Origin: Mycobacterium sp. Root265
GTDB taxonomy: Bacteria; Actinomycetota; Actinomycetes; Mycobacteriales; Mycobacteriaceae
Length of the DNA stretch: 64,000 nt
Assembly: GCF_001428895.1 (NCBI RefSeq)
Contig: NZ_LMJA01000004.1
Coordinates: forward strand, 99,787-163,786
Direction: 5' to 3'
Made by a program: the position numbers and the translations under genes. Position 1 is the first letter of the stretch, and each line of letters opens with the position of its first letter. The notes below the pieces were generated by a model that ran no database searches, was not told the origin of the DNA, and saw nothing but the letters and a program-made list of their open reading frames with translations. Shown here piece after piece: positions 2,890 through 61,462 of this stretch.

Positions 2890-3921
2890 ATGCGTATTGG
2901 TGTTCTCACAGGTGGCGGTGACTGTCCTGGCCTGAATGCGGTGATCCGCGCGGTGGTGCGCACCAGTGCGGTGCGGTACGGCTCGTCGGTGGTGGGTTTC
3001 CAGGACGGCTGGCGCGGTTTGTTGGAAGACCGCCGCATCCAGCTGTCGAACGACGACCGCAATGACCGGCTGCTCGCCAAGGGCGGCACCATGCTGGGCA
3101 CCGCGCGTGTCAACCCGGACAAGCTGCGCGCCGGTCTGGACCAGATCAAGCAGACCCTCGAAGACAACGGGATCGACGTCCTGATTCCCATCGGCGGCGA
3201 GGGCACGCTGACCGCGGCGCACTGGCTGTCCGAGGAGAACGTCCCGGTGGTCGGGGTGCCCAAGACCATCGACAACGATATCGATTGCACCGACGTCACT
3301 TTCGGCCATGACACCGCCCTGCACGTCGCGACCGACGCCATCGACCGGCTGCACAGCACCGCCGAATCGCATCAGCGGGTGATGCTGGTCGAGGTGATGG
3401 GCCGCCACGCCGGGTGGATCGCGCTCAACGCCGGCCTGGCCTCGGGGGCGCACATGACGCTGATCCCCGAGCAACCTTTCGACGTGGAGGAAGTGTGCCG
3501 GCTGGTCAAACAGCGCTTCGTGCGCGGTGATTCGCACTTCATCTGTGTGGTGGCCGAGGGTGCCAAGCCTGCAGAGGGTTCGATGCAGCTCAAGCAGGGC
3601 GGTACCGACGAGTTCGGGCACGAGAAGTTCACCGGTGTGGCACACCAGCTCGGCGTCGAGATCGAGAAGCGGATCAACAAGGAAGTGCGGGTCACGGTGC
3701 TCGGCCACGTGCAGCGTGGCGGTACCCCGACGCCGTATGACCGGGTGCTGGCCACCCGATTCGGCGTCAACGCCGCCGACGCCGCGCACGCGGGTGAGTA
3801 CGGGATGATGGTGTCGCTGCGCGGACAGGAAATCGGCCGGGTCCCGCTGGCCGACGCCGTGCGTCAGCTCAAGCTCGTCCCGCAAAGCCGCTATGACGAT
3901 GCCGCGGAGTTCTTCGGGTAG
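2890..3921 (+). CDS. pfkA: 6-phosphofructokinase
   Basis: A 343-residue group A phosphofructokinase, which phosphorylates fructose 6-phosphate to the 1,6-bisphosphate in glycolysis. The nucleotide loop GGGDCPGLN is at residues 8-16, GGEGT at 102-106 and the catalytic PKTIDND at 124-130, followed by TFGHDTA and the MGRHAGW sugar-phosphate motif. The length equals the mycobacterial enzyme. The GGEGT segment resembles the actinobacterial ATP-using group rather than the GGDDT form of PPi enzymes, but donor specificity is inferred. The ATG lies directly after a short divergent spacer shared with poxB. Confidence 0.96.
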
Positions 3922-3972
3922 CCGCGGCTGGTCCGCGCTTCGCGCTTCCCGATGTTTGCAAAGGCGGCAACC

Positions 3973-3991
3973 AAGTTAGTCGTCCTTACTT
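3973..3991. promoter_or_regulatory. Near-palindromic AT-rich dyad upstream of DyP cluster
   Basis: Arms AAGTTAG and CTTACTT (6 of 7 positions symmetrical) flank TCGTC, in the 205-bp gap between pfkA and the DyP cluster, about 135 bp before the first start codon. It does not match the IdeR consensus. It may be an operator; no regulator is assigned. Confidence 0.25.
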
Positions 3992-4126
3992 TTTCCCGGC
4001 GAGCCCCGGCCGCATCGAAATCGCCTAAGCCGCAGGCGGATCAGTGATTTCACCTCTTGCAGTTCGCGCGCCGGAACGGGTCTCCGGGTGTAGCGTCCGA
4101 GACACCGAATCGGGAAAGGTGTCGAC

Positions 4127-4687
4127 ATGGCGGCAGGGAATGACGACTGGACCAAGCCGGCAGCGATGGCCATCCCCAAAGAGGGCTATTTTGAGCTGGA
4201 ACGCGGAAGGTACGGTCCGGTCTACCCCAGGACGCCCGCGTGCCACGGCTTCTCGATCATCGCGAAGGTGAAAGAGGGCCGCGAGGAGGCGGTCCGCGCC
4301 TACGGCAAGACGATCGAGGAGACCATCGCGGCGAGCCCGGAGGCATTGGCGCCGCTGAAGTTGCACTACCTGCGGTGGAATCTCTTCGACATCGGTTCCG
4401 GCCTGCACTTCCAGTACATGGGCATCTTCGACACCGACTTCGACAAATACACCGAGGATGCCGTCCAGTTGTTCAGTGCGACCGGCATCACCACCATTTT
4501 CACCCAACTCGAAGGCTTCCCCGAGGACTGGAAGGAGAACCCCGAGGCCTTCATCAAGTTCGTCCGCGACCACCAGCAGCCGAGCTTCCTGGAATACGGC
4601 GAATACCCCTACGTGACCGCCGACGAGATCAAGAAGGCACTGAAACTCAAGGCCGCCTTCTCGGACATGCTCGACCAGATGCAGTGA
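4127..4687 (+). CDS. Hypothetical protein, first gene of DyP-peroxidase cluster
   Basis: A 186-residue soluble protein with no signal peptide or membrane segment, not confidently recognised. Residues 40-115 have an alpha/beta ferredoxin-like look: a strand HGFSIIAKV, a helix, then the KLHYLRWNLFDIGSGLHFQY block at 78-97 and FDTDFDKY at 101-108. This RW-strand-FD pattern resembles half-domains found next to or fused with some DyP-like peroxidases; that link is inferred. The ATG follows GGGAAAGG at suitable spacing. Its stop overlaps the GTG of the peroxidase gene (GTGA), so the two are translationally coupled. It probably partners the peroxidase; no reaction can be assigned. Confidence 0.75.
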   Translation: MAAGNDDWTKPAAMAIPKEGYFELERGRYGPVYPRTPACHGFSIIAKVKEGREEAVRAYGKTIEETIAASPEALAPLKLHYLRWNLFDIGSGLHFQYMGIFDTDFDKYTEDAVQLFSATGITTIFTQLEGFPEDWKENPEAFIKFVRDHQQPSFLEYGEYPYVTADEIKKALKLKAAFSDMLDQMQ

Positions 4688-6018
4688 CCACAACGCTCGA
4701 ATTCGACGATATCCAGCACATCCTGCTGACCAGGACGCCGGCGATCACCGGGCGTTACGAGTTCCTGACGTTCGATACCCCGGCCGGTGGACGCGCCTGG
4801 CTGACGGCATTGCTCGATCGGGTGCAGTCCGCATCCGACGCCACATCGACCATGGACGAATCGGACCGCTGGGTCACCCTCGCGTTCACCTGGACCGGCC
4901 TGCGCGCACTCGGCGTGCCCGAGGAATCGCTGGCCACCTTCCCCGACGCGTTCCGCGAGGGGATGGCCGGCAGGGCCGCCATCCTCGGTGACACCGGTAC
5001 GTGCGCACCCGAACACTGGGTCGGCGGGCTGGCCGGCGACGATGTGCACGCCATTGCGATCCTGTTCTCCCGCACCGACGAGCAGTGCGCCCGCTCGATC
5101 GAAGAACACGACAAACTGTTGGCGCGCACCGAGGGTGTGCGCAGCCTGTCCTACCTCGACCTGAACGCCTCGCCGCCGTTCAACTACGCCCACGATCATT
5201 TCGGCTTCCGGGACCGGCTGTCCCAGCCGGTCATGAAGGGCTCCGGCGAGGAACCGACACCGGGATCGGGCGACGCGCTGGAAGCCGGCGAGTTCATCCT
5301 CGGGTATCCCGACGAGAACGGTCCGGTCGCGAATCTTCCTCAGCCCGAGATCTTGTCGCGCAACGGAAGTTTCATGGCCTACCGCAGGCTGCAGGAGCAC
5401 GTCGGAACGTTTCGCGAGTATCTGAGCGATCACGCCGAGACGCCCGAGGAGCAGGAACTGCTGGCCGCCAAGTTCATGGGCCGCTGGCGCAGCGGCGCAC
5501 CACTGGTGCTGGCACCCGAGCACGACGATCCGGAGTTGGGTGCCGACCCGATGCGCAACAACGATTTCAACTACAAGGAGATGGATCCGCACGGGTACGC
5601 CTGCCCGCTGGGTTCGCACGCCCGCCGGCTCAACCCGCGTGACACTGCGCATTACATGAACCGTCGCCGGATGATCCGGCGCGGCGCCACCTACGGTCCG
5701 GCGCTACCCGACGGCGCACCCGATGACGGTGTCGAGCGCGGTATCGCGGCGTTCATCATCTGTGCAGATCTGGTGCGCCAGTTCGAATTCGCGCAAAACG
5801 TCTGGATCAATGACAAGGCATTCCACGAGTTGGGCAATGAGCACGATCCGATCGCCGGGACCCAGGACGGCACGCTGGATTTCACCGTCCCCAACCGGCC
5901 GATCCGCAAGGTCCATAAGGGCCTGCCGGCGTTCACCACCCTCACCGGAGGGGCGTACTTCTTTCTGCCGGGCATGTCGGCGATGAGGTACCTGGCGGCA
6001 CTGGACACGGGAGAGTGA
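4684..6018 (+). CDS. DyP-type heme peroxidase
   Basis: A 444-residue dye-decolorising-type peroxidase using H2O2 to oxidise an unknown substrate. The variant signature GFRDRLSQP (catalytic Asp at residue 177) is at 174-182, followed by LGYPDENG and NGSFMAYRRLQ. The proximal heme His is probably H312 in GSHARRLNPRD, and the distal Arg lies in RRRMIRRG (about 327-334). The GTG at 4684 was chosen because it overlaps the upstream stop by 4 bases. There is no signal peptide or Tat motif. The C-terminus (LAALDTGE) shows no obvious encapsulin-loading tail. It sits between two unknown genes in a tight + strand operon. Confidence 0.9.
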   Translation: MTTTLEFDDIQHILLTRTPAITGRYEFLTFDTPAGGRAWLTALLDRVQSASDATSTMDESDRWVTLAFTWTGLRALGVPEESLATFPDAFREGMAGRAAILGDTGTCAPEHWVGGLAGDDVHAIAILFSRTDEQCARSIEEHDKLLARTEGVRSLSYLDLNASPPFNYAHDHFGFRDRLSQPVMKGSGEEPTPGSGDALEAGEFILGYPDENGPVANLPQPEILSRNGSFMAYRRLQEHVGTFREYLSDHAETPEEQELLAAKFMGRWRSGAPLVLAPEHDDPELGADPMRNNDFNYKEMDPHGYACPLGSHARRLNPRDTAHYMNRRRMIRRGATYGPALPDGAPDDGVERGIAAFIICADLVRQFEFAQNVWINDKAFHELGNEHDPIAGTQDGTLDFTVPNRPIRKVHKGLPAFTTLTGGAYFFLPGMSAMRYLAALDTGE

Positions 6019-46755: not shown

Positions 46756-48984
46756 GTGGTTGCGCTCAACGACCTGCTCTCACCCATCATCGGCGCCAAG
46801 GCCGCCGACAAGCTGGAGGAAGCCTTCGGCATCCGTACGGTCAACGACCTGCTGCGCCATTACCCGCGCAAGTACAGCGACGGGATGACCGTCCGCGAAG
46901 AGGGCGAGGAGATCGAACTCGAGGAGGGCACCCATGTGACCTTCGTCGACGTCATCACCGCCACCGATGTCCGGCAGATGAAACCCCAGCCGGGCAAGCG
47001 ACCACGCAAGATGCTCAAGGTCACCCTCGGTGAGCGCAACCCCGCGATCACCGCCACCTTCTTCAACGCCGATTACCTCGTCAACAGCCTCACCCGGGGC
47101 ACCAGGGTGATGCTCTCCGGTGAGATCGGCTACTTCCGGCAGACGATGCAGCTGTCGCATCCGGCGTTCCTGATCATCGGCGCCCCGGGCGAACGGACCA
47201 TCGGGACAAGGTCGTTCGCGAAGATCGCCGACGCGTCGGGGGAGTCCGGCTCGGACGTCCTGGCCGCCTTCGAAAGAGAGTTCTTCCCGATCTATCCGGC
47301 GACCAAGAAGCTGCAGAGCTGGGACATCTACGCCTGCATCTGTCAGGTGCTGGCGGTGCTCGACCCGATCCCCGAGCTGCTGCCGGATGCCTTTCTGCGG
47401 CAATGGAATCTGATCTCGGAAGACACCGCCCTGCGCCGCGTGCACGTCTCGGAGAACGCCGTCGAGCGGGAGGCCGCGCAGGAACGACTGACCTACGACG
47501 AGGCGATCGGCCTGCAGTGGGCGCTGGTGTCGCGGCGCTACGGCGCGCTCGGTGAGACCGGGCCGGCGGCCCCGCTGCGCAGCGACGGTCTGGCGGCCGC
47601 CCTGATGAAGCAGTTGCCGTTCGAGTTGACCGGCGGTCAGCGTGAGGTGCTCGACGTCATCTCCGGTGAGCTCGCCAAGACCCGGCCGATGAACCGGATG
47701 CTGCAGGGTGAGGTGGGCTCCGGCAAGACCATCGTGTCGGTACTGGCGATGCTGCAGATGGTCGACGCCGGCATGCAGTGCGCGCTGCTGGCGCCCACCG
47801 AGGTACTCGCCGCGCAGCACTACCGTTCCATCCGCCAGGTACTGGGGCCGCTGGCGATGGCCGGTGAACTCGGGGCCGCCGACGGGGCCACCGCCATCAC
47901 CCTGCTCACCGGTTCGATGTCACCACAGCAGAAGCGCCAGGCCCGTGATGAGATCTATTCCGGCACAGCAGGAATCGTGGTGGGAACGCACGCCATCATC
48001 CAGGAGTCGGTGGAGTTCGGCCGGCTCGGCATGGTGGTGGTGGACGAACAGCACCGGTTCGGCGTCGAGCAACGGGACCGGTTGCGCGCCAAGGCCACCG
48101 GGGGGATCACCCCGCACCTGCTGGTGATGACGGCGACGCCTATCCCGCGCACCATCGCCCTGACCGTGTTCGGCGACCTGGAGACCTCCACGCTGCGAGA
48201 GCTGCCCCGTGGACGCCAGCCCATCACCAGCAATGTGGTGTTCACCAAGGACAAGCCGTCCTGGCTGGACCGGGCGTGGGCGCGCATCATCGAGGAGGTG
48301 GCCGCCGGGCGGCAGGCCTACGTGGTGGCCTCGCGTATCGATGAGGAGCCCGACAAGAAGAACGCCTACGAGCACGGCCCGCCGCCGGTCACCGTGCTGC
48401 AGGTGCTGGAACGGCTGAGCACCGGGCCGTTGGCCGGGTTACGGCTCGGGCTGATGCACGGGCGGCTGGCGCCCGAGGAGAAGGACGCGGTGATGTCGGC
48501 ATTCCGGGCCGGCGAGATCGACGTGCTGATCTGTACCACCGTCATCGAGGTCGGCGTCGACGTGCCCAACGCCACCATGATGGTGGTGATGGATGCCGAC
48601 CGGTTCGGCATCAGCCAGTTGCACCAGCTGCGGGGGCGTATCGGCCGCGGGCAGCATCCGAGCCTGTGCCTGTTGGTGACACGGATGCCGGAGAGTTCCA
48701 AGGCCGGTGAACGGTTGCGCGCGGTGGCGGGCACCCTGGACGGTTTCGCGTTGGCCGACCTCGACCTCCAGGAGCGTCAGGAGGGAGATGTGCTGGGCTA
48801 CAACCAGTCCGGACGTCTCACCACGCTGCGCTTCCTGTCATTGGCAGATCATCTGGGCATCATTCAGGACGCCCGCAGTTTCTGCGAGTCCGCGTATCTG
48901 GACAATCAGTACCAACCCGGGCTGGACGTGCTGGCCGCGCCGTTCGCCGACTCGGATCGGGTTCAGTACCTGGACAAGTCGTGA
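46756..48984 (+). CDS. recG: ATP-dependent DNA helicase RecG
   Basis: A 742-residue superfamily 2 helicase that remodels stalled forks and Holliday junctions. The N-terminal wedge/OB domain (VRQMKPQPGKRPRKMLKVTL) is followed by Walker A GEVGSGKT at 318-325, DEQH as the Walker B variant, VMTATPIPRTIALT and QLRGRIGRGQHPSLCLL. GTG start. Its stop overlaps the GTG of the next gene by 4 bases. Confidence 0.97.
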   Translation: MVALNDLLSPIIGAKAADKLEEAFGIRTVNDLLRHYPRKYSDGMTVREEGEEIELEEGTHVTFVDVITATDVRQMKPQPGKRPRKMLKVTLGERNPAITATFFNADYLVNSLTRGTRVMLSGEIGYFRQTMQLSHPAFLIIGAPGERTIGTRSFAKIADASGESGSDVLAAFEREFFPIYPATKKLQSWDIYACICQVLAVLDPIPELLPDAFLRQWNLISEDTALRRVHVSENAVEREAAQERLTYDEAIGLQWALVSRRYGALGETGPAAPLRSDGLAAALMKQLPFELTGGQREVLDVISGELAKTRPMNRMLQGEVGSGKTIVSVLAMLQMVDAGMQCALLAPTEVLAAQHYRSIRQVLGPLAMAGELGAADGATAITLLTGSMSPQQKRQARDEIYSGTAGIVVGTHAIIQESVEFGRLGMVVVDEQHRFGVEQRDRLRAKATGGITPHLLVMTATPIPRTIALTVFGDLETSTLRELPRGRQPITSNVVFTKDKPSWLDRAWARIIEEVAAGRQAYVVASRIDEEPDKKNAYEHGPPPVTVLQVLERLSTGPLAGLRLGLMHGRLAPEEKDAVMSAFRAGEIDVLICTTVIEVGVDVPNATMMVVMDADRFGISQLHQLRGRIGRGQHPSLCLLVTRMPESSKAGERLRAVAGTLDGFALADLDLQERQEGDVLGYNQSGRLTTLRFLSLADHLGIIQDARSFCESAYLDNQYQPGLDVLAAPFADSDRVQYLDKS

Positions 48985-49685
48985 AGCGGATCGGTCTGCT
49001 CGGGGCCGGCGTCGCGCTGGCGGTGCTGGTCGCCGTGCAGGTCAGCACCGAACCCGGTGCGGGTTCGGCGCGATATGTGGCCGAGGCCGATATCCCGACC
49101 GTCGCGCCCGGCGTCGACGTGCTGGCCGGGGTGATCGAGATCCCGGTCCGGATGCCCGGTTACGACTACCGCCGTGACGCGTTCGGGGAGTCCTGGGACG
49201 ATGACAACGATGCCCCCGGCGGGCGCAACGGCTGCGACACCAGAAACGACATCCTGGACCGCGATCTCGTCGAGAAGTCGTACGTATCGATCAAGCGGTG
49301 CCCGACCGCGGTTGCCACCGGCACGCTGATCGATCCGTACACCAACACCACCATCGCCTTCGTGCGCGGCAACCAGATCGGGGCGTCGGTGCAGATCGAC
49401 CACATCGTTCCGCTCTCGCTGGCCTGGGATCTCGGCGCCCGCACCTGGACCGGCGAAATGCGGCTGCGGTTCGCCAATGACCCGGCCAATCTGCTCGCCG
49501 TCGACGGGCCGACGAATCAGAACAAGGGTGACAACGAGCCGGCGGTGTGGATGCCGCCCAACCGGGCGTTCTGGTGCCAGTACGCGGTGCAGTTCGCCGC
49601 GGTGCTGCGCGGGTACGGGCTGCCGGTGGATGCGCCCTCGGCACGGGTGCTGCGGGAGGCGGCCGGGACGTGCCCGACGGGCTGA
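48981..49685 (+). CDS. Secreted DUF1524/HNH nuclease-like protein
   Basis: A 234-residue protein with an N-terminal signal or anchor (about 4-20) and a C-terminal HNH-type domain. CDTRNDILDRDL, QIDHIVPLSLAWDLGA (active-site DH) and DGPTNQNKGDNEP follow the DUF1524 pattern of extracellular nucleases. It corresponds to Rv2972c. It is coupled to recG by a 4-base overlap. Nuclease activity is inferred from the motif. Confidence 0.88.
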   Translation: MKRIGLLGAGVALAVLVAVQVSTEPGAGSARYVAEADIPTVAPGVDVLAGVIEIPVRMPGYDYRRDAFGESWDDDNDAPGGRNGCDTRNDILDRDLVEKSYVSIKRCPTAVATGTLIDPYTNTTIAFVRGNQIGASVQIDHIVPLSLAWDLGARTWTGEMRLRFANDPANLLAVDGPTNQNKGDNEPAVWMPPNRAFWCQYAVQFAAVLRGYGLPVDAPSARVLREAAGTCPTG

Positions 49686-49691
49686 GGCGCG

Positions 49692-49714
49692 ATCTACGTA
49701 GCAGAGGCGTAGAT
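49692..49714. promoter_or_regulatory. Candidate BlaI operator upstream of blaI
   Basis: ATCTACG (49692-49698) and CGTAGAT (49708-49714) are perfect inverted arms, centred on 49703 and ending 26 bp before the blaI ATG. The left half contains CTACGTAG. Over 19 positions it matches the second dyad at 52293-52311 at 14. Confidence 0.65.
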
Positions 49715-49739
49715 TGGCCGTTCGGGAACGGAGGTGCGC

Positions 49740-50117
49740 ATGCAGCAGCGCGGGTTCGGTGACCTCGAGGCGACCGTGATGGACCGGGTGTGGGGCCGCG
49801 AGGACGGCGTCACCGTGCGTGAGGTCTTCGAGGAACTCACCGACGCACGCCAGATCGCCTACACCACGGTGCTGTCCACCCTGGACAATCTGCATCGCAA
49901 GGGCTGGGTGCGGCGTGTACGCGAAGGCAAGGCCTACCGGTACTGGGCGACGATGACCCGTGAGGAGCGCTCGGCCAACCTGATGCGCGCCGCGTTCGAG
50001 TCCGGCGGCAAGCCCGAGGCGGTGCTGGCGTTCTTCGTCGAACAGATGTCGGCCGACGAATCCGCGCAACTGAAGGCGGCGCTGCGGTCGTCCGGTACCC
50101 AGAAGCGCCGCCGATGA
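49740..50117 (+). CDS. blaI: BlaI/MecI-family penicillinase repressor
   Basis: A 125-residue winged-helix repressor. LEATVMDRVWGREDGVTVREV and IAYTTVLSTLDNLHRKGWVRR are the BlaI DNA-binding signatures. The C-terminal helices form the dimer, whose linker is cleaved or released in response to the M56 protease. ATG 49740 was chosen because GGAGG lies 5 bases before it; a GTG at 49734 would overlap that site. The sequence differs clearly from M. tuberculosis BlaI (Rv1846c) as recalled, so this is a second-type system. The ATGA overlap couples it to the protease gene. An operator-like dyad sits at 49692. Confidence 0.92.
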   Translation: MQQRGFGDLEATVMDRVWGREDGVTVREVFEELTDARQIAYTTVLSTLDNLHRKGWVRRVREGKAYRYWATMTREERSANLMRAAFESGGKPEAVLAFFVEQMSADESAQLKAALRSSGTQKRRR

Positions 50118-51028
50118 CCGCCGCGGTCTACCTGCTGGCCTACGGGGCGCTGGTGACCTGGCTGGCGCCGCCACTGTTGGCCAGGCTCACCCGCCGCGGG
50201 CTGAACCCGCAACTGGGAGTGGCGGCCTGGCTGACGGCCATCGTCGGTGTACTGGCGGCATGGGCGGTGGCGATATCGCTCATCGTGGTCAACGGGTTAC
50301 GCGGACTACCGGATTCACCGGTGCTGGTCGTCTGCCTGGAACTGCTCGGGATCCCCGAACAGGTCGCCACCCCGGGGTTGCCGGGCCTGTTGCTGGTGAT
50401 CGCCGCCGGTGTGGTCCTGACCGCAGCGGTGAGCATGAAGGTGGGACGCGCGGTGCGGGGGTCCCGCGATCGCAGCCATGATCACGCGCACGCCGCCCGG
50501 CTGGTAGGTCTGCCCACCGATCGTCCGGATGTCTTTCTGCTCAATGCCGAACGGCCCGCCGCATATTGCGTGGTCGGGCGCCCGAACGCGATCGTGGTGA
50601 CCACCGCAGCCGTGCAGCGCCTTACCCCATCGCAGCTGAATGCGGTGCTGGCCCACGAAGACGCGCACATCGCAGGCCGTCACCACCAGGTACTGATGTT
50701 CTTGCGGGCCTTGGCCGCAACACTGCCGCGTCTGCCGCTCTTCCCGCGCGGTGCCGCGGCGGTGGGTGACCTGCTGGAAATGTGCGCCGATGACGCCGCC
50801 GCTCGACGGCACGGCAGCCGGGCGCTGGTCGCGGGAATGCTCGAACTGGCCGGACCGGTGCAGCCGGCAGGTCTGGCGGTCGGCGCAAGCGCGATCGCCG
50901 TGCGTGCCAATCGGCTACTCGTGCCGGCGGGCCGGGGGAGTCTGCAGCGTCACCGGTTGCTGGCGTGGGCGACCATCGCCGTGACGGCCGGCGCACCCGT
51001 CGTCATCAACCTGATCTGTCATCACTGA
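50114..51028 (+). CDS. M56-family membrane protease, BlaR-like without sensor domain
   Basis: A 304-residue membrane protein. Helices are at about 3-24, 36-60, 90-108 and 283-300. The zinc-protease motif HEDAH is at 181-185, with the likely third ligand Glu222 in LLEMCADDAA. Conserved M56 blocks VVTTAAVQRLTPSQLNAVLAHEDAH precede it. It ends shortly after the last helix, so the extracellular penicillin-binding domain of staphylococcal BlaR1 is missing. It is expected to cleave or inactivate the adjacent BlaI. How it senses damage is not visible in its own sequence. Confidence 0.9.
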   Translation: MTAAVYLLAYGALVTWLAPPLLARLTRRGLNPQLGVAAWLTAIVGVLAAWAVAISLIVVNGLRGLPDSPVLVVCLELLGIPEQVATPGLPGLLLVIAAGVVLTAAVSMKVGRAVRGSRDRSHDHAHAARLVGLPTDRPDVFLLNAERPAAYCVVGRPNAIVVTTAAVQRLTPSQLNAVLAHEDAHIAGRHHQVLMFLRALAATLPRLPLFPRGAAAVGDLLEMCADDAAARRHGSRALVAGMLELAGPVQPAGLAVGASAIAVRANRLLVPAGRGSLQRHRLLAWATIAVTAGAPVVINLICHH

Positions 51029-51048
51029 TAACCAGGTGAGACGGCTGG

Positions 51049-52251
51049 TCAGGCGGCGGCGTTGCCCGCTTTCCACTGCTCCCACGGGATGTTCCAGTCA
51101 CCGAGACCGTCGGTACCCGGCAGCGTCGGCCCGACGGTGTTCACCACCTCGACGATATCCCCGCGTTTGGTGTTGTCGTAGAACCACTTCGCGTTCTCGG
51201 TGCTGGCGTTGAGGCAGCCGTGGCTGACGTTGGCCCGGCCCTGACTGCCCACCGACCAGGGAGCGGCGTGCACGAAGATCCCGCTGTAGGACATCCGGGT
51301 GGCCCACTTGACCTCGGTGCGATACCCGTCGGGTGAGTTCACCGCCACGCCGTAGGTCGACGAATCCATCACCATGTCCGCCAGGCGTTCGGCCACGATG
51401 TAGGTGCCGTGGTCGGTGGGTGTCTTGTCCTTGCCCATCGAGATCGGCATCGTCTTGGCCACTTCGCCGTTGACGCGCACGGTCAGCGTCTTGGTGGCGT
51501 CATCGGCGGTGGCGATGACCTCGTCGCCGATGGTGAATCGGGTGGTGGCATCGTCCTGGCCGAACAGGCCATCGCCGAGATCCACGCCGTAGGTCTTCAC
51601 CTGCACCTCGACGATGGTGCCGGGTTTCCAGTATTGCGCGGGCCGCCAGCGGACCTCGCGGCCGCTGAGCCAGTAGAACGCCCCCTCGACCTCCGGGGTG
51701 GTGGTCACGGTGATGGCGCGTTGCGCGGCCACCCGATTGGGGATGACCTCATCGAAGGTCACCGAAATGGGCTGGCCCACACCGACCACCGCGCCGTCAT
51801 CGGGCATGACGTAGGGCATCGCCAGATTCTGCGGGGAGTGTGTCTCGAAGGTCGCGCTGGTGTGGGTCACCCCGCCCAATCCGAAGGCGTCGGCGTCGAG
51901 CGTGTATTCCTTGTTGTAGCCCAGTGGTTCGGCGGAACGCCAGGAGACGCCGTCGGCGCTCAGTTCGCCGTCGACGACCCGGCCCTGGGCATTCACCAGT
52001 GTCACCTCGCCGAGCACACCGGCCTCGACGCTGACGGTCACCGGTTCCTCCACCGACACGCCGATGTCGCCGTCGGTGACCGAGGCCTGCAATGTCGGTA
52101 CCAACAAGTCCCCGTACGGCGTGCCCTTGTCCGTCACCGTCTGTGCTTGCGGCGGGGCCGGTGCCGAGGTGCAGGCACTCAACCCCAACACGACCGCCAC
52201 GACGGTCAGCAGAGCCAGAGCCGCGGTTGCCGATGTCGCCCGCCTCATCAC
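51049..52251 (-). CDS. L,D-transpeptidase lipoprotein, LdtMt2-like
   Basis: A 400-residue exported lipoprotein that forms 3-3 peptidoglycan cross-links, a reaction insensitive to most penicillins. The signal peptide ends in lipobox LSAC (Cys27). Two Ig-like domains precede the YkuD catalytic domain, whose nucleophile Cys346 lies in SHGCLN, followed by the 54-residue end also found after the catalytic Cys in M. tuberculosis LdtMt2. Long stretches such as [15 protein letters not shown] and [18 protein letters not shown] closely follow LdtMt2. It is divergent from the DsbA-like gene, with a BlaI-type dyad between, and convergent with the M56 gene. Confidence 0.95.
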
Positions 52252-52292
52252 AGTGTTCCTGCCGTCCGTCGAAGTGCCCTTGCGCTAACATC

Positions 52293-52311
52293 CTACGTAG
52301 TAACTACGTAG
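52293..52311. promoter_or_regulatory. Candidate BlaI operator between ldt and dsbA-like gene
   Basis: CTACGTAGTAACTACGTAG consists of two copies of the self-complementary octamer CTACGTAG separated by TAA; the whole is a palindrome apart from its central base. On the - strand a TTGACG -35-like element (52322-52317) lies directly upstream of it, so binding would block the transpeptidase promoter. Confidence 0.7.
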
Positions 52312-52367
52312 ATGCACGTCAACGCGTGTGCGGGGCGACGCGAGCGGTGCATCGGGGAAGAGAAACC

Positions 52368-53027
52368 GTGTTGAAGACCCGCGCCGGCCGCGCCTGGGTG
52401 ACCGCATTCGCCGTCCTGGTGATCCTTGCGGTGGGTGTCGTGCTACTGGCCACCCGCGGCGAGGACGATCGCGACGCGCAGGCATCGGACACCGGCGCGG
52501 TGCAGGTGGTGCGCGACAGCAGCCACCGCCTGAACGCTCCGCAGGACGCGACCGTGACATTCGTCGAATTCCTGGACTTCGAATGCGAGGGCTGCCGGGC
52601 CGCCTATCCGATCGTCGAACAGCTGCGCACCGACTACGGTGACCGCGTCGAGTTCGTGCTGCGGTACTTCCCCTTGTCGGGTCACTTCAACGGCGAACGC
52701 GCCGCGCGTGCCGTGGAAGCCGCAGCGCAGCAGGGCCGGCTTGAAGCGATGTACCGAAAGATGTTCGACACCCAGGCCGAATGGGGCGAGCAGCGCACGC
52801 CCGCCGATGACGTCTTCCGCGGTTTCGCCGGCGATCTCGGCCTGGACCTGGCGGCCTTCGACGCCGCCTACAACGACCCGGCCACCCTGGAACGCATCCG
52901 GGTCGACCAGCGTGACGGCGAAGCGCTCGGTGTGATGGGTACACCCACCTTCTTCGTCAACGGCGAGCAGATTCCCGTACAGAGATCAGAAGACCTGCGC
53001 AACGCCATCGACAGCGCGCTGGGGTGA
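52368..53027 (+). CDS. DsbA-like thioredoxin-fold oxidoreductase, membrane-anchored
   Basis: A 219-residue protein with an N-terminal membrane anchor (about 9-28) and an extracytoplasmic DsbA-type domain. The active site is C73-E-G-C76 in FLDFECEGCRAAYP and the cis-Pro is in MGTPTFFVNG (P193). GTG 52368 has GGGGAAGAG five bases upstream. The stop overlaps the GTG of the serine-hydrolase gene, so the two are co-translated. It probably oxidises or isomerises disulfides in exported proteins. It is distinct from the DsbA at 60117 (CPHC). Confidence 0.88.
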   Translation: MLKTRAGRAWVTAFAVLVILAVGVVLLATRGEDDRDAQASDTGAVQVVRDSSHRLNAPQDATVTFVEFLDFECEGCRAAYPIVEQLRTDYGDRVEFVLRYFPLSGHFNGERAARAVEAAAQQGRLEAMYRKMFDTQAEWGEQRTPADDVFRGFAGDLGLDLAAFDAAYNDPATLERIRVDQRDGEALGVMGTPTFFVNGEQIPVQRSEDLRNAIDSALG

Positions 53028-53839
53028 CACCCGCACGTGCCCTGGTGGCGGTCTGGATGCTGTGCGCGGGCCTCATCGCCGCTCCGGTGGCCTCGGCGAA
53101 CTGCGATACCTCGGACCCGCAATGTGTGCTGCAACAGCGCGTCGCGACCGCCGAGAAGTACGTCGCGACCCGACCGGGAACGGTCGGGTTCGTGCTGCGT
53201 GACCGGGTCACCGGCGCGCGGTACCGCAACGCCGCGGCGGGGACACCGATCTGGACCGCGTCGACGATCAAACTGGCGATGGTGGCCGACCTGCTCACCC
53301 GCGAACAGGCCGGGACGTTGCGTCTCACCGCGGCAGACCGGGATCAGATGGCCGCAATGCTGCGCAGTTCCGACAACGAGGCCGCCGACTCACTGTGGTC
53401 GCGCCACGGCGGCACCGACAACGTGTTCAATACGAACTTCGCTCGGTTCGGGATGAAAAGCGTGCGGCCCCAATCCGGTTTCGGTGACGTCTATCCGTAC
53501 TGGGGCTTTCAGAAGGGCACCGCCGACGATTTCGACGCCTTGATGAACTATGTGCTCACCGGGCTCACGCCGGCCAACGCGGCAGCGGTGGTCGCCGAGA
53601 TGCAGCGGGTGGACAGCTCGCAGCAGTGGGGTGTCTGGGGTGCCGGTGCGGCGATGACGCCGGGCAACAAGAACGGCTGGTCGCAGGAGCAGGGTGGGTG
53701 GGTGGTCAATTCTGTCGGATTCGCCGGCCCGGGCCAGCGCTACACCCTGGCCATCATGAACGGTCTCGGTGGCGACGGCGGATACGACGACGGGGTGCAA
53801 ACGACGACCGAGCTGTCCCGAATTCTGCTGGGACCGTAG
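53024..53839 (+). CDS. Secreted beta-lactamase-fold serine hydrolase
   Basis: A 271-residue exported protein with a signal peptide ending near VASA (residue 25). The class A motifs are S80-T-I-K83 (SxxK), S116-D117-N118 (SDN) and K216-N217-G218 (KTG position). The omega-loop ExxLN containing the deacylating Glu166 is not apparent between them. It may therefore acylate beta-lactams without efficient hydrolysis, or act as a peptidase or binding protein. Its mature part has only two Cys (C27, C34), which could form a disulfide supplied by the coupled DsbA-like protein. The last gene of the cassette, it ends 3 bases before a convergent tetR. Confidence 0.85.
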   Translation: MTPARALVAVWMLCAGLIAAPVASANCDTSDPQCVLQQRVATAEKYVATRPGTVGFVLRDRVTGARYRNAAAGTPIWTASTIKLAMVADLLTREQAGTLRLTAADRDQMAAMLRSSDNEAADSLWSRHGGTDNVFNTNFARFGMKSVRPQSGFGDVYPYWGFQKGTADDFDALMNYVLTGLTPANAAAVVAEMQRVDSSQQWGVWGAGAAMTPGNKNGWSQEQGGWVVNSVGFAGPGQRYTLAIMNGLGGDGGYDDGVQTTTELSRILLGP

Positions 53840-53842
53840 GGT

Positions 53843-54502
53843 TCAGCCCGCCGGCTGCCAGCCGTTCATCGCGGTGTCCATCTGATCGTCGTCGAGTGCG
53901 TTCACCGGCAGCCGGGCCTGTCCGTCGCGGTGCCGCAGACCGTCGAGCAGCAACGCGACGTAGCGGCGCCAGAGGTCGGGCTCGACATGGCCGGCCCACT
54001 CACTCACGGTGCCGGCCAGCATGCTGAGGATCGGCATATCGGTGTGGTCGGCATCGGCACGCAGATAACCATCGGCGCGGGCGCGGTCGACGAGTCGCGA
54101 GATCGGGGGCACCAGCCGAAGCCGCGCGCATTCGACCGGGTATCCGCCATAGGCGGTGCTGTAGACCATCTCGCGCAGACCGCGATCGGTTGCGGTCAGC
54201 TCACAGAGATGTTCGACGAACCACACGAAGCCGTCCCACGAGTTCTGGCGCTGCATGGCCGATTCGGCGAGCGCCACGATCTGCTCGATGGCGTTCTCGA
54301 AGATCGCGTCGAGCAGTTCCTGTTTCGTGGCGAAACGCCGATATACGGTTCCGACACCGACATTGGCATGGTGGGCGACGTCGTTGAGGGTGGCTTCCAG
54401 GCCTCGCTGCGCGAACAGGTCCCGCGCGGCATCGAGGACGCGTTGCCGATTGCGTTCGGCGTCCTTGCGCAACGCGCGGCGGGGTTCGTCGGTGGTGGTC
54501 AC
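53843..54502 (-). CDS. TetR-family regulator (second of a coupled pair)
   Basis: A 219-residue regulator. The helix-turn-helix is TLNDVAHHANVGVGTVYRRFATKQELLD (about residues 38-65). The C-terminal domain resembles TetR regulators with a YP-rich ligand pocket (YSTAYGGYPVECARL). Its GTG/ATG region overlaps the end of the upstream tetR by 4 bases. The target is not certain; the pair is divergent from the metal-hydrolase operon. Confidence 0.92.
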   Translation of the reverse strand: MTTTDEPRRALRKDAERNRQRVLDAARDLFAQRGLEATLNDVAHHANVGVGTVYRRFATKQELLDAIFENAIEQIVALAESAMQRQNSWDGFVWFVEHLCELTATDRGLREMVYSTAYGGYPVECARLRLVPPISRLVDRARADGYLRADADHTDMPILSMLAGTVSEWAGHVEPDLWRRYVALLLDGLRHRDGQARLPVNALDDDQMDTAMNGWQPAG

Positions 54503-55152
54503 GGCGGGAACACCTGTGTGATGCTGCCGGTGGCGGCGTGCGCGATGTGATCCCGCTGGGCGGCCACCGCGCCACCGAGCCAGCGCCGCAGGAATTTTCG
54601 TAGCTCGGCCGGTGGCCGGTGGGCGTCGTTGGGCGCGACGAAGAAGGACAGCATGATCCGCAGCGTGAACTCCACCAACTCCTGAAGGCTGGCTTCGTCA
54701 TAGCCGTGGGCGGCCCAGTCCACGTCGAAACGGTCGACCATGCGCATGCCGATGGCGCGGGCCTCCTCGGAGGTCAGATCCTCGGTGTGGTTGTGCGGGT
54801 AGGACTCTGAGAGCAGGATGCCCAGGTGCGGGGTGCGGCTGACCTCGTCGAGGGTGAACAGGGTGCCTTGGGTGAGCGCGTCGGCCGGGTCGTGCAGACC
54901 GCGCACGCTGTCGGCGAGACGGTCCAGAAAGGCATCGACCGAACCCATGGCCACCGCGTGCATCAGGGCATCGGAGGTGGGGAAGTAGCGGTAGACGGTC
55001 TGGCGGATGATGCCCAGTGAGTTGGCGACCTCGGCGAGGGAGACGGCCGATCCGGTGGCGCTGATCAGATCGACGGCGGCCGTGATGATGCGCTGGGTGG
55101 CCTCTTCATCGGTCTGGGGTGGGTTGCCGCCCCACCCGCGCCTGCGTGCCAT
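54499..55152 (-). CDS. TetR-family regulator (first of a coupled pair)
   Basis: A 217-residue regulator. The helix-turn-helix SLAEVANSLGIIRQTVYRYFPTSDALM is near residue 40. ATG 55152 (MARRRGWGGN) has GGGAG upstream and was preferred over an ATG at 55194. The effector domain is a different sequence from its neighbour, so the two are not a recent duplication. It is divergent from the 55247 gene, with the dyad at 55198-55227 between them. Confidence 0.92.
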   Translation of the reverse strand: MARRRGWGGNPPQTDEEATQRIITAAVDLISATGSAVSLAEVANSLGIIRQTVYRYFPTSDALMHAVAMGSVDAFLDRLADSVRGLHDPADALTQGTLFTLDEVSRTPHLGILLSESYPHNHTEDLTSEEARAIGMRMVDRFDVDWAAHGYDEASLQELVEFTLRIMLSFFVAPNDAHRPPAELRKFLRRWLGGAVAAQRDHIAHAATGSITQVFPP

Positions 55153-55197
55153 GACCAACTCCCTCTCGGCGGTACGCGACGGTAGCACGCACATGTC

Positions 55198-60116: not shown

Positions 60117-60848
60117 GTGGCGAACAAACCGAAGAAGCAGGCCAGCTACGACTTGAAGGCCGCCGACCGCAAGCGCAACCTTTTCGTCCAGATCGGGCTC
60201 ACCTCGGTCGTGGTGCTCTTCGCAGTCGCGTTGGTGCTCTGGATCGTGCTGTCGGGCGAGACCAAGCCCGAATCCGGCGAGGCCCGCTCGGTCCGCATCG
60301 AGTCGAGCAATGTGGTCAAGAAGGACGACGGGATCGAGCCCAAGCTCGTGCTGTCGGTCTACGAGGATCCGCTGTGCCCGCACTGCGGCGCCTTCGAGAA
60401 GGCCTTCGGGCCCACCATCAACAAGCTCATCGACGGCGGCGCGATCGCGGTCGACTACTACATGGTCGGCATCCTGAACAGCGCCGGCAACCAGAACTAC
60501 TCGTCGCGGGCCAGCGGCGCCGCCTACTGCGTCGCCGATGAGTCGACCGAGGCGTTCCGCCGATTCCACGGCGCCCTCTACGCCCAGCAGCCCAGCGAGA
60601 CCGGCGGCGCCTACCCGACCGACGCGCAACTCATCGAGACCGCGCGCCAGGCCGGCGCCGCGGGCAAGGTGCCCGAGTGCATCGACAAGGGCCGCTACGT
60701 CGACATGGCTTCCGGCATGGCCGCCGCCACGGAGATCAATGCCACCCCGACCGTCCGCGTGAACGGCGAGGACTACCAATACAGCACCCCCGAGGCCCTG
60801 GTCGCGAAGGTCAAGGAGATCGTCGGCAACGTGCCGGGGATGCCGTGA
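60117..60848 (+). CDS. dsbA: DsbA-type disulfide oxidoreductase
   Basis: A 243-residue membrane-anchored (about 22-46) thioredoxin-fold enzyme, orthologue of Rv2969c. The active site is C87-P-H-C90, the cis-Pro is in NATPTVRVNG, and C138/C188 match the extra structural disulfide described for the M. tuberculosis protein. GTG start 10 bp after lipN. It is coupled by a GTGA overlap to the VKOR gene, which re-oxidises it. Confidence 0.95.
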   Translation: MANKPKKQASYDLKAADRKRNLFVQIGLTSVVVLFAVALVLWIVLSGETKPESGEARSVRIESSNVVKKDDGIEPKLVLSVYEDPLCPHCGAFEKAFGPTINKLIDGGAIAVDYYMVGILNSAGNQNYSSRASGAAYCVADESTEAFRRFHGALYAQQPSETGGAYPTDAQLIETARQAGAAGKVPECIDKGRYVDMASGMAAATEINATPTVRVNGEDYQYSTPEALVAKVKEIVGNVPGMP

Positions 60849-61462
60849 CGGTAGAAGCGCCTCTCGAGTCGGCCGAGGTTCCGGCCGAGCAGAGCGGGGT
60901 GCGCAGGTCCAGCGCGATCGGTGTGCTCATCGCCGGCGTGCTGGGGCTCGCCGCGGCCGCGACGCTGACCGTCGAGAAGATCGAGATCCTGATCGATCCC
61001 AGCTACATCCCGTCGTGCAGCCTGAACCCGGTGTTGTCCTGCGGGTCGGTGATGACGACACCGCAGGCCTCGGTCTTCGGGTTCCCCAATTCGCTGATCG
61101 GCATCATCGCCTTCACCGTCGTGCTGGTGACCGGCGTGCTGGCCGTCGCGCGGATCGATCTGCCGCGCTGGTACTGGGCGGGTCTGGCCATCGGCACCGG
61201 CCTGGGCGTGGTTTTCGTGCACTGGCTGATCTTCCAGAGCCTTTATCGGATCGGGGCGCTGTGCCCCTACTGCATGGTGGTCTGGGCGGTGACCGTCCCG
61301 CTGCTGGTGATCGTCACGTCGATCGCCCTGCGTGCCGACACCGGCACCGGGGTGCTGGGCGCGGTCTACCAATGGCGCTGGTCGCTGGTGGCGCTGTGGT
61401 TCACCGCGGTGCTGCTGATGATCCTGGTTCGTTTCTGGAATTACTGGTCGACTCTGGTGTGA
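60845..61462 (+). CDS. Vitamin K epoxide reductase (VKOR) homologue
   Basis: A 205-residue membrane protein with about five helices, the DsbB-equivalent of actinobacteria. The loop Cys C58 and C66 (SCSLNPVLSC) and the active-site pair C140-P-Y-C143 are present. Electrons flow from DsbA through these to menaquinone. Orthologue of Rv2968c. GTG 60845 overlaps the dsbA stop. Confidence 0.95.
   Translation: MTVEAPLESAEVPAEQSGVRRSSAIGVLIAGVLGLAAAATLTVEKIEILIDPSYIPSCSLNPVLSCGSVMTTPQASVFGFPNSLIGIIAFTVVLVTGVLAVARIDLPRWYWAGLAIGTGLGVVFVHWLIFQSLYRIGALCPYCMVVWAVTVPLLVIVTSIALRADTGTGVLGAVYQWRWSLVALWFTAVLLMILVRFWNYWSTLV

What the first reader, a model, noticed from the sequence alone, without database searches (positions are those of the whole stretch)
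49692..53839. Compact BlaI-type cassette pairing an L,D-transpeptidase with a co-translated DsbA-like/serine-hydrolase unit
Seen: blaI overlaps an M56 protease gene; convergent to it is an LdtMt2-like L,D-transpeptidase; divergent from that are a DsbA-like gene and a beta-lactamase-fold gene overlapping by 4 bases. Two CTACGTAG dyads lie at the two promoters. Known: BlaI/M56 pairs de-repress genes on cell-wall damage, and L,D-transpeptidases bypass penicillin-sensitive cross-linking. Inferred: one circuit that switches cross-link chemistry and exports a folded beta-lactam-binding protein. I know of no such cassette at this place in M. tuberculosis.
Basis: partly seen in the sequence, partly recalled or inferred. 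Interest (0 to 1): 0.85.

Follow-up and report, generated by a model that had tools for sequence, protein, structure and literature searches.

The report
BlaI-controlled mycobacterial cell-wall repair cassette
A mycobacterium carries a five-gene, probably self-regulated cassette that may switch on a spare cell-wall cross-linking enzyme and helper proteins when the envelope is damaged, and the same control sequence turns up in related gene islands, many with metal-resistance genes, that I did not find described.

Summary
In detail: blaI and a membrane-protease gene overlap by 4 bases and face an LdtMt2-type L,D-transpeptidase gene; divergent from that are dsbA-like and class-A-beta-lactamase-fold genes overlapping by 4 bases. 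There are three CTACGTAG dyads, not two: one before blaI and two, 11 bp apart, between ldt and dsbA2. The 6.67-Mb genome has eight.

Before dsbA2 the 11-bp dyad pair is present in 20 of 20 loci examined (window and 19 relatives; at least one exact dyad in 19). It stays with the remaining target where ldt or dsbA2 is missing. The exact pair occurs in 37 of 397 same-genus genomes (reversed pattern: 1); all 37 carry this BlaI subfamily. The dyad before blaI is exact in only 5 of 24.

I read it as a BlaI/protease envelope-stress switch. The protease lacks BlaR1's penicillin sensor but has two near-invariant cysteines on its predicted outer face. Of 20 more distant BlaI loci, 15 carry metal-type genes; of the 18 closest, none does. 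BlaI binding and the signal are unproven. A spare Ldt with an exported penicillin-binding-type protein is plausible; a beta-lactam-sensing circuit is not supported. New variant of a known kind.

The parts
49694..49701 (.). CTACGTAG dyad in the blaI promoter region
   Evidence: exact in 5 of 24 blaI upstream regions, window included
49710..49715 (+). TAGATT, possible -10 box of blaI (TANNNT consensus recalled); the dyad would lie in the spacer (inference)
   Evidence: sequence; TAGATT within 75 nt before blaI in 18 of 24 loci
49740..50117 (+). blaI (called BlaI2 here), no cysteine; 39% identical over 121 aa to the genome's other BlaI
50114..51028 (+). membrane metalloprotease (M48/M56-like; HExxH 181-185, E222), no penicillin sensor, near-invariant C74 and C302
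51049..52251 (-). ldt: lipoprotein L,D-transpeptidase of LdtMt2 type, second copy in this genome; cysteines only at 27 (lipobox) and 346 (SHGC)
52293..52300 (.). CTACGTAG dyad 1 of the ldt/dsbA2 divergent promoter
52304..52311 (.). CTACGTAG dyad 2, 11 bp after dyad 1
52368..53027 (+). dsbA2: DsbA-like thiol oxidoreductase with invariant CEGC and an N-terminal hydrophobic stretch
53024..53839 (+). bla2: probably exported class-A-beta-lactamase-fold protein (S80xxK83, S116DN118, K216xG218, C27/C34 invariant in 17 sequences)

Best explanation
A BlaI/membrane-protease switch for envelope stress. Shown by comparison: a BlaI subfamily usually sits next to an M48/M56-type protease, and a CTACGTAG tandem (11-bp period) sits at the promoters of recurrent neighbours, above all ldt and dsbA2-bla2. 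Inferred: BlaI holds this divergent promoter off; damage or thiol/metal stress at the outer face activates the protease, which inactivates BlaI; the cell then makes a second LdtMt2-type cross-linker, a DsbA/DsbG-like protein that may keep the Ldt's single mature catalytic cysteine usable or form a C27-C34 disulfide in bla2, and bla2, a PBP-A-like serine protein that could bind beta-lactams or trim peptidoglycan. The inducer is probably not a beta-lactam bound by the protease itself; copper or thiol damage is my leading guess.
For: Dyad: 8 in 6.67 Mb, 3 of them here. Tandem in 37 of 397 genomes against 1 for the reversed pattern; all 37 are among the 180 with this BlaI, hypergeometric 2e-14 (ignores relatedness). 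51 dyads in 38 BlaI2 loci (608 kb) against 0.73 expected at the own-genome rate, and 0 in 20 random loci (320 kb). 11-bp spacing in 20 of 20 dsbA2 promoters. The tandem precedes dsbA2 where ldt is missing (L051, L054) and ldt where dsbA2 is missing (L049). Lone ldt or dsbA2 genes at a tandem: L117, L124, L142, L113. ldt in 27 of 38 BlaI2 loci, dsbA2 19, bla2 20, against 0 of 20 random (24, 17 and 17 of 35 without three loci picked with bla2 in mind). C74 57 of 58, C302 58 of 58. bla2 fold matches class A enzymes, PBP-A and LRA-5. Ldt/DsbG link in E. coli: PMC3526765 (passages).
Against: No binding or expression data. The dyad does not fit the published CopY/BlaI core TACANNTGTA (PMC7253601, passages): CTAC and GTAG touch. 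The blaI upstream region lacks the exact dyad in 19 of 24 loci. Ten of 38 BlaI2 loci have no exact dyad at all. In six loci no protease gene was found beside blaI (L060-L063, L078, L081; L060 and L061 near-identical). CGATATCG is nearly as frequent in BlaI2 loci (46 against 51), though it is also commoner than CTACGTAG in the window (9 against 3). Metal-type genes: 0 of the 18 closest loci. The protease model is weak (pLDDT 69), so closeness and side of C74 and C302 are untested.
Confidence: 0.6

Rival explanations
1. A true beta-lactam response: wall damage by beta-lactams triggers the protease indirectly, or bla2 is a detached penicillin sensor acting in trans, and Ldt bypasses the blocked transpeptidases.
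For: BlaI-type repressor; Ldt of LdtMt2 type; bla2 has SxxK, SDN and KxG and a class A fold; blaI, protease and bla2 stay together in loci where ldt and dsbA2 were not found (L055, L059).
Against: No sensor domain on the protease; bla2 not found in L049, L052 and L056, which keep BlaI, protease and dyad; bla2 was found in 20 of 38 BlaI2 loci only, and islands without it hold RipA/RipB or metal-type genes.
Confidence: 0.22
2. CTACGTAG belongs to another regulator that shares these islands, and BlaI regulates through other sites.
For: Dyad geometry differs from the published BlaI/CopY core; exact dyad missing before most cassette blaI genes; islands also hold OmpR-type regulators and histidine-kinase-like genes.
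Against: In the window no other regulator gene lies between blaI and bla2, though two TetR genes follow; every tandem-bearing genome (37 of 37) has this BlaI.
Confidence: 0.15
3. The genes are independent neighbours at a recombination hot spot and the arrangement has no joint function.
For: About 2-7 kb separate recG-HNH from blaI in some relatives (L043, L045, L047, L048, L056-L058).
Against: Recurrence in rearranged orders with the tandem retained; random loci give 0 of 20.
Confidence: 0.03

Closest known systems
BlaI-BlaR1 / MecI-MecR1 of staphylococci
   Same: winged-helix repressor plus membrane metalloprotease, dyads at a divergent promoter (layout of the staphylococcal systems recalled)
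   Different: no penicillin-binding sensor domain; CTACGTAG tandem instead of TACANNTGTA; neighbours are Ldt, DsbA-like and PBP-A-like proteins
M. tuberculosis BlaI (Rv1846c; PDB 2g9w assigned to it from memory) and its M56 neighbour
   Same: same family; repressor gene followed by protease gene
   Different: the window BlaI matches 2g9w at 77.5 bits, the genome's other BlaI (L009) at 231 bits end to end, so that one is the likely counterpart; its protease lacks C74 and C302
CopY/CopR copper repressors
   Same: best NCBIfam hit of this BlaI is CopY_TcrY, below cut-off (35 of 121.95 bits); distant relatives near metal-type genes
   Different: no CXC metal motif, indeed no cysteine; protease partner present
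LdtMt2 (Rv2518c; locus tag recalled)
   Same: match over nearly the whole protein, 577.7 bits
   Different: the genome's other copy scores 624.9, so this is a second copy
PBP-A and LRA-5 (class-A-like proteins; lack of the usual Glu166 recalled)
   Same: fold match; no ExxLN motif seen in bla2
   Different: 16-18% identity; bla2 has an N-terminal cysteine pair and D or E at 155

Membership tests
BlaI/BlaR1 beta-lactam-inducible system | Penicillinase_R repressor | tested here: met
   88.3 bits, cut-off 22.6
BlaI/BlaR1 beta-lactam-inducible system | M56 protease next to it | tested here: inconclusive
   HExxH membrane protease, but Pfam M56 below and M48 above cut-off
BlaI/BlaR1 beta-lactam-inducible system | penicillin-binding sensor domain on the protease | tested here: not met
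   304 aa, no such domain in Pfam; chain ends after the last helix; best fold matches are M48-type proteases, none at E <= 0.001
BlaI/BlaR1 beta-lactam-inducible system | TACA/TGTA-type operator | tested here: not met
   the conserved dyad is CTACGTAG with touching half-sites (published core); that it is BlaI's operator is itself unproven
BlaI/BlaR1 beta-lactam-inducible system | induction by beta-lactams | not testable with these tools
   needs expression data
CopY copper repressor | C-terminal CXC metal motif | tested here: not met
   no cysteine in the 125 aa
CopY copper repressor | NCBIfam CopY_TcrY cut-off | tested here: not met
   35 of 121.95 bits
L,D-transpeptidase, LdtMt2 type | YkuD domain with SHGC motif and Ig-like domain | tested here: met
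class A beta-lactamase | SxxK, SDN, K-T/S-G | tested here: inconclusive
   SxxK and SDN in 17 of 17; third motif is K-N-G (15) or K-D-G (2)
class A beta-lactamase | Glu166 (ExxLN) | tested here: inconclusive
   no ExxLN seen; D (14) or E (3) at 155; model weak at 151-160 and 201-240; NCBIfam bla_class_A 19.1 of 200 bits
DsbA family | DSBA domain with CXXC and TP loop | tested here: met
   74.3 bits, cut-off 25.6; CEGC and TP invariant in 16 sequences

The most novel reading that the evidence does not exclude
A BlaR1-like protease that has an outer-face cysteine pair (C74/C302) in place of a penicillin sensor works as a thiol or copper sensor. It commands, through CTACGTAG tandems, a mobile backup set of cysteine-dependent envelope enzymes (Ldt, RipA, RipB, DsbA2, with a spare CtaE), replacing those that copper or oxidation poisons. 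The window cassette is a chromosomal descendant that shed the metal genes.
Probability: 0.35. Interest if true: 0.78.

Novelty: new variant of a known kind. Interest (0 to 1): 0.62.

Why it matters
It gives a precise, testable candidate operator and target list for a mycobacterial regulon that my paper searches did not find. It also offers a reason why metal-type genes and peptidoglycan enzymes recur together: copper is reported to inhibit L,D-transpeptidases (Peters 2018, seen only as a citation and one clause in PMC12729407). If right, metal exposure in the environment would bear on wall chemistry that also matters for beta-lactam tolerance.

Tried and rejected
Beta-lactam sensor on the protease: rejected on length and domains. 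Chance dyads: rejected. General control of blaI by the dyad: rejected, exact in 5 of 24. CopY membership: rejected, no CXC. The protease model was too weak to place C74 and C302, and no coordinates were available to measure. The operator of M. tuberculosis BlaI could not be read: Sala 2009 was met only in reference lists; passages of five papers were seen, of which PMC12565901 reports a BlaI motif in a figure that is not held. Paper searches for such a regulon (listings, with abstract starts) showed none among the papers listed; several listings were capped, and 'CTACGTAG' gave 156 papers of which 30 were listed, none about this by title. A single-dyad count over the genus was not run, to save the genome quota. 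No phylogenetic correction was made for the 37-of-37 association. In my scripts two island genes bore labels that a later check did not bear out: 'CopC' is a DUF1775 protein (copper link recalled), and 'MCO456' has no family and is not used.

Choice and dropping of rows: the 38 BlaI2 loci are mostly the best-scoring BlaI hits, with a few passed over; L078, L080 and L081 were taken knowing that a bla2 hit lay near. L061 (near-identical to L060) and L064 (overlaps L063) were dropped, L061 also; protease proteins outside 270-360 aa were dropped.
Full report
ANATOMY. The block lies after recG (46756-48984) and a secreted-looking HNH gene (48981-49685) and before two TetR genes. blaI and the protease gene overlap by ATGA; ldt is convergent to them; dsbA2 and bla2 overlap by GTGA and diverge from ldt. 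A second DsbA-type gene and a VKOR-like gene (my reading; only the first was scanned) are also in the window (60117-61462; labels Rv2969c/Rv2968c recalled). That M. tuberculosis lacks the block here is recalled, not tested.

DYADS. CTACGTAG occurs at 49694, 52293 and 52304 and eight times in 6.67 Mb. In 20 loci with dsbA2 (window and 19 relatives), two dyads 11 bp apart precede dsbA2 in all 20: both exact in 9, one exact and one with 1-2 mismatches in 10, both with one mismatch in 1 (L054). Before blaI the exact dyad is in 5 of 24 (window, L042, L044, L046, L047). The exact tandem was sought in 397 same-genus genomes: 37 have it, at 45 sites; the reversed control occurs in 1. All 37 are among the 180 of 397 with this BlaI at E <= 1e-24 (hypergeometric 2e-14, which ignores relatedness). 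Of the 45 sites, 34 were fetched anew and 11 lay in stretches already held. A BlaI2 hit is within about 8 kb in 27 of the 34 and in all 11 (window). The other seven: L117, L124 and L142 have a lone ldt at the tandem, L113 a lone dsbA2, L139 short dsbA2 and bla2 matches, and L134 and L144 lie on stretches cut short by contig ends.

ENRICHMENT. Thirty-eight loci taken from the BlaI hits (mostly the best; see Tried and rejected) hold 51 dyads in 608,537 bases, in 28 of 38 loci; 0.73 are expected at the own-genome rate. Without the three loci picked with bla2 in mind, 45 in 552,235 bases. 34 of 51 lie outside called genes against 186 of 692 for other palindromes of the same composition, p = 2e-8. 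A caveat: CGATATCG is nearly as frequent (46), though it is also common in the window at large (9 against 3). Twenty random 16-kb loci from 16 genomes that carry this BlaI hold none in 320,020 bases.

VARIANTS ('not found' means no tblastn hit at 1e-8 in the fetched stretch). Full order: window, L042-L048, L053, L057, L058. blaI-protease-dsbA2-bla2 without ldt: L051, L054. blaI-protease-bla2: L055, L059. ldt kept, dsbA2 and bla2 not found: L049. bla2 not found: L052, L056. Protease not found next to blaI: L060-L063, L078, L081; those genomes have further BlaI2 hits, so a protease could act in trans (inference). L050 is cut by a contig end. Named carriers of the full order include Mycolicibacterium sp. 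P9-22, M. aurum and M. neoaurum ATCC 25795; M. frederiksbergense LB 501T has the form without the protease. Of 79 dsbA2 loci from named records (MAGs included; the best 80 of 126 were kept), 18 have an exact dyad within 150 bp upstream, 21 a BlaI hit, 22 an ldt, 23 a bla2, 19 a protease, and 43 a hit to the P-type ATPase query.

PROTEINS. Ldt matches LdtMt2 over residues 10-400 (577.7 bits), but the genome has another copy, 69% identical to it, that scores 624.9. Its cysteines are C27 (lipobox) and C346 (SHGC motif). DsbA2 has invariant CEGC in 16 sequences. Bla2 has invariant S80xxK83, S116DN118, K216xG218 and C27/C34 in 17 and a class A fold (model pLDDT 74; beta-lactamases, PBP-A and LRA-5 among the top matches); no solved structure matches by sequence at E <= 0.01. 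The protease has HExxH and no sensor domain. Among 58 distinct relatives (35-88% identical to the window's), C74 is kept in 57 and C302 in 58; with the window they are the only columns at 95% or more between residues 40 and 123 and after 295. C152 is as conserved but is shared with the genome's other BlaI-linked protease, which has T at 74 and F at 302 (S at 302 in the re-alignment). H304 is less conserved (43 of 58). Two Rhodococcus plasmid relatives keep both cysteines. If the protease domain is cytosolic as in BlaR1 (recalled), both face outward; this is inference.

METAL LINK. Five plasmid stretches were read. RipA, RipB or an Ldt-type gene lies within the stretch in four (M. poriferae pJCM12603, M. 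gilvum pMSPYR101, M. vanbaalenii JOB5, R. erythropolis CERE8, where the Ldt-type gene is 43% identical) and not in Rhodococcus sp. WAY2; copper-type genes are annotated in four (not in gilvum, which shows arsenic/cadmium-type genes). The vanbaalenii table lists no protease, but PLSDB tables are incomplete. One representative each from island loci passed NCBIfam cut-offs for a copper P-type ATPase, RipA, RipB, CtaE and CopM. In loci nearest the window's BlaI (L042-L059) metal-type genes (P-type ATPase, DUF305 or DUF1775 queries) were found in 0 of 18; in L060-L081 in 15 of 20 (14 without DUF1775), among them all five that carry ldt-dsbA2-bla2 (L060, L062, L063, L078, L081); in random loci in 1 of 20. 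The queries come from these islands, which favours them, and singly the ATPase, DUF305 and DUF1775 differences from random are not significant (p = 0.14, 0.08, 0.08; together 0.005). In a protease tree the 18 proteins of the cassette group form one clade (FastTree support 1.0) nested among island ones (the group was set beforehand from BlaI similarity and gene order).

READING. Regulation by BlaI through the tandem is likely but unproven. What is sensed is open; I lean to thiol/metal damage at the envelope. In E. coli DsbG is reported to protect transpeptidases with a single cysteine (review PMC3526765, passages), which gives the ldt-dsbA2 pairing a precedent.

Noticed in passing
L007:1501-1508 (G000:C28): An intergenic CTACGTAG about 20 bp before a gene elsewhere in the same genome: a possible further target of this BlaI.
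   Followed up: partly
L068:4985-6094 and 3729-4988; L064, L073, L077 similar by eye: BlaI2 islands carry an SbnA-like PLP enzyme (below cut-off) next to an MFS gene, perhaps a small metal-chelator pathway.
   Followed up: partly
L114, L120, L127, L130, L131, L135, L137: CTACGTAG tandems about 0.4-0.6 kb from a cytochrome oxidase subunit III gene of CtaE type, with a subunit I gene about 6-8 kb off.
   Followed up: partly
G111:C314, G391:C42, G347:C93: bla2 relatives lie in two adjoining pieces in different frames: a frameshift, pseudogene or assembly error; left as found.
   Followed up: no
window 53843-55194: Two overlapping TetR-type genes follow the cassette and have matches beyond bla2 in the nearest relatives (L042-L048).
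   Followed up: no
G096, G346, G356: Nine to ten matches to this BlaI subfamily in one genome.
   Followed up: no
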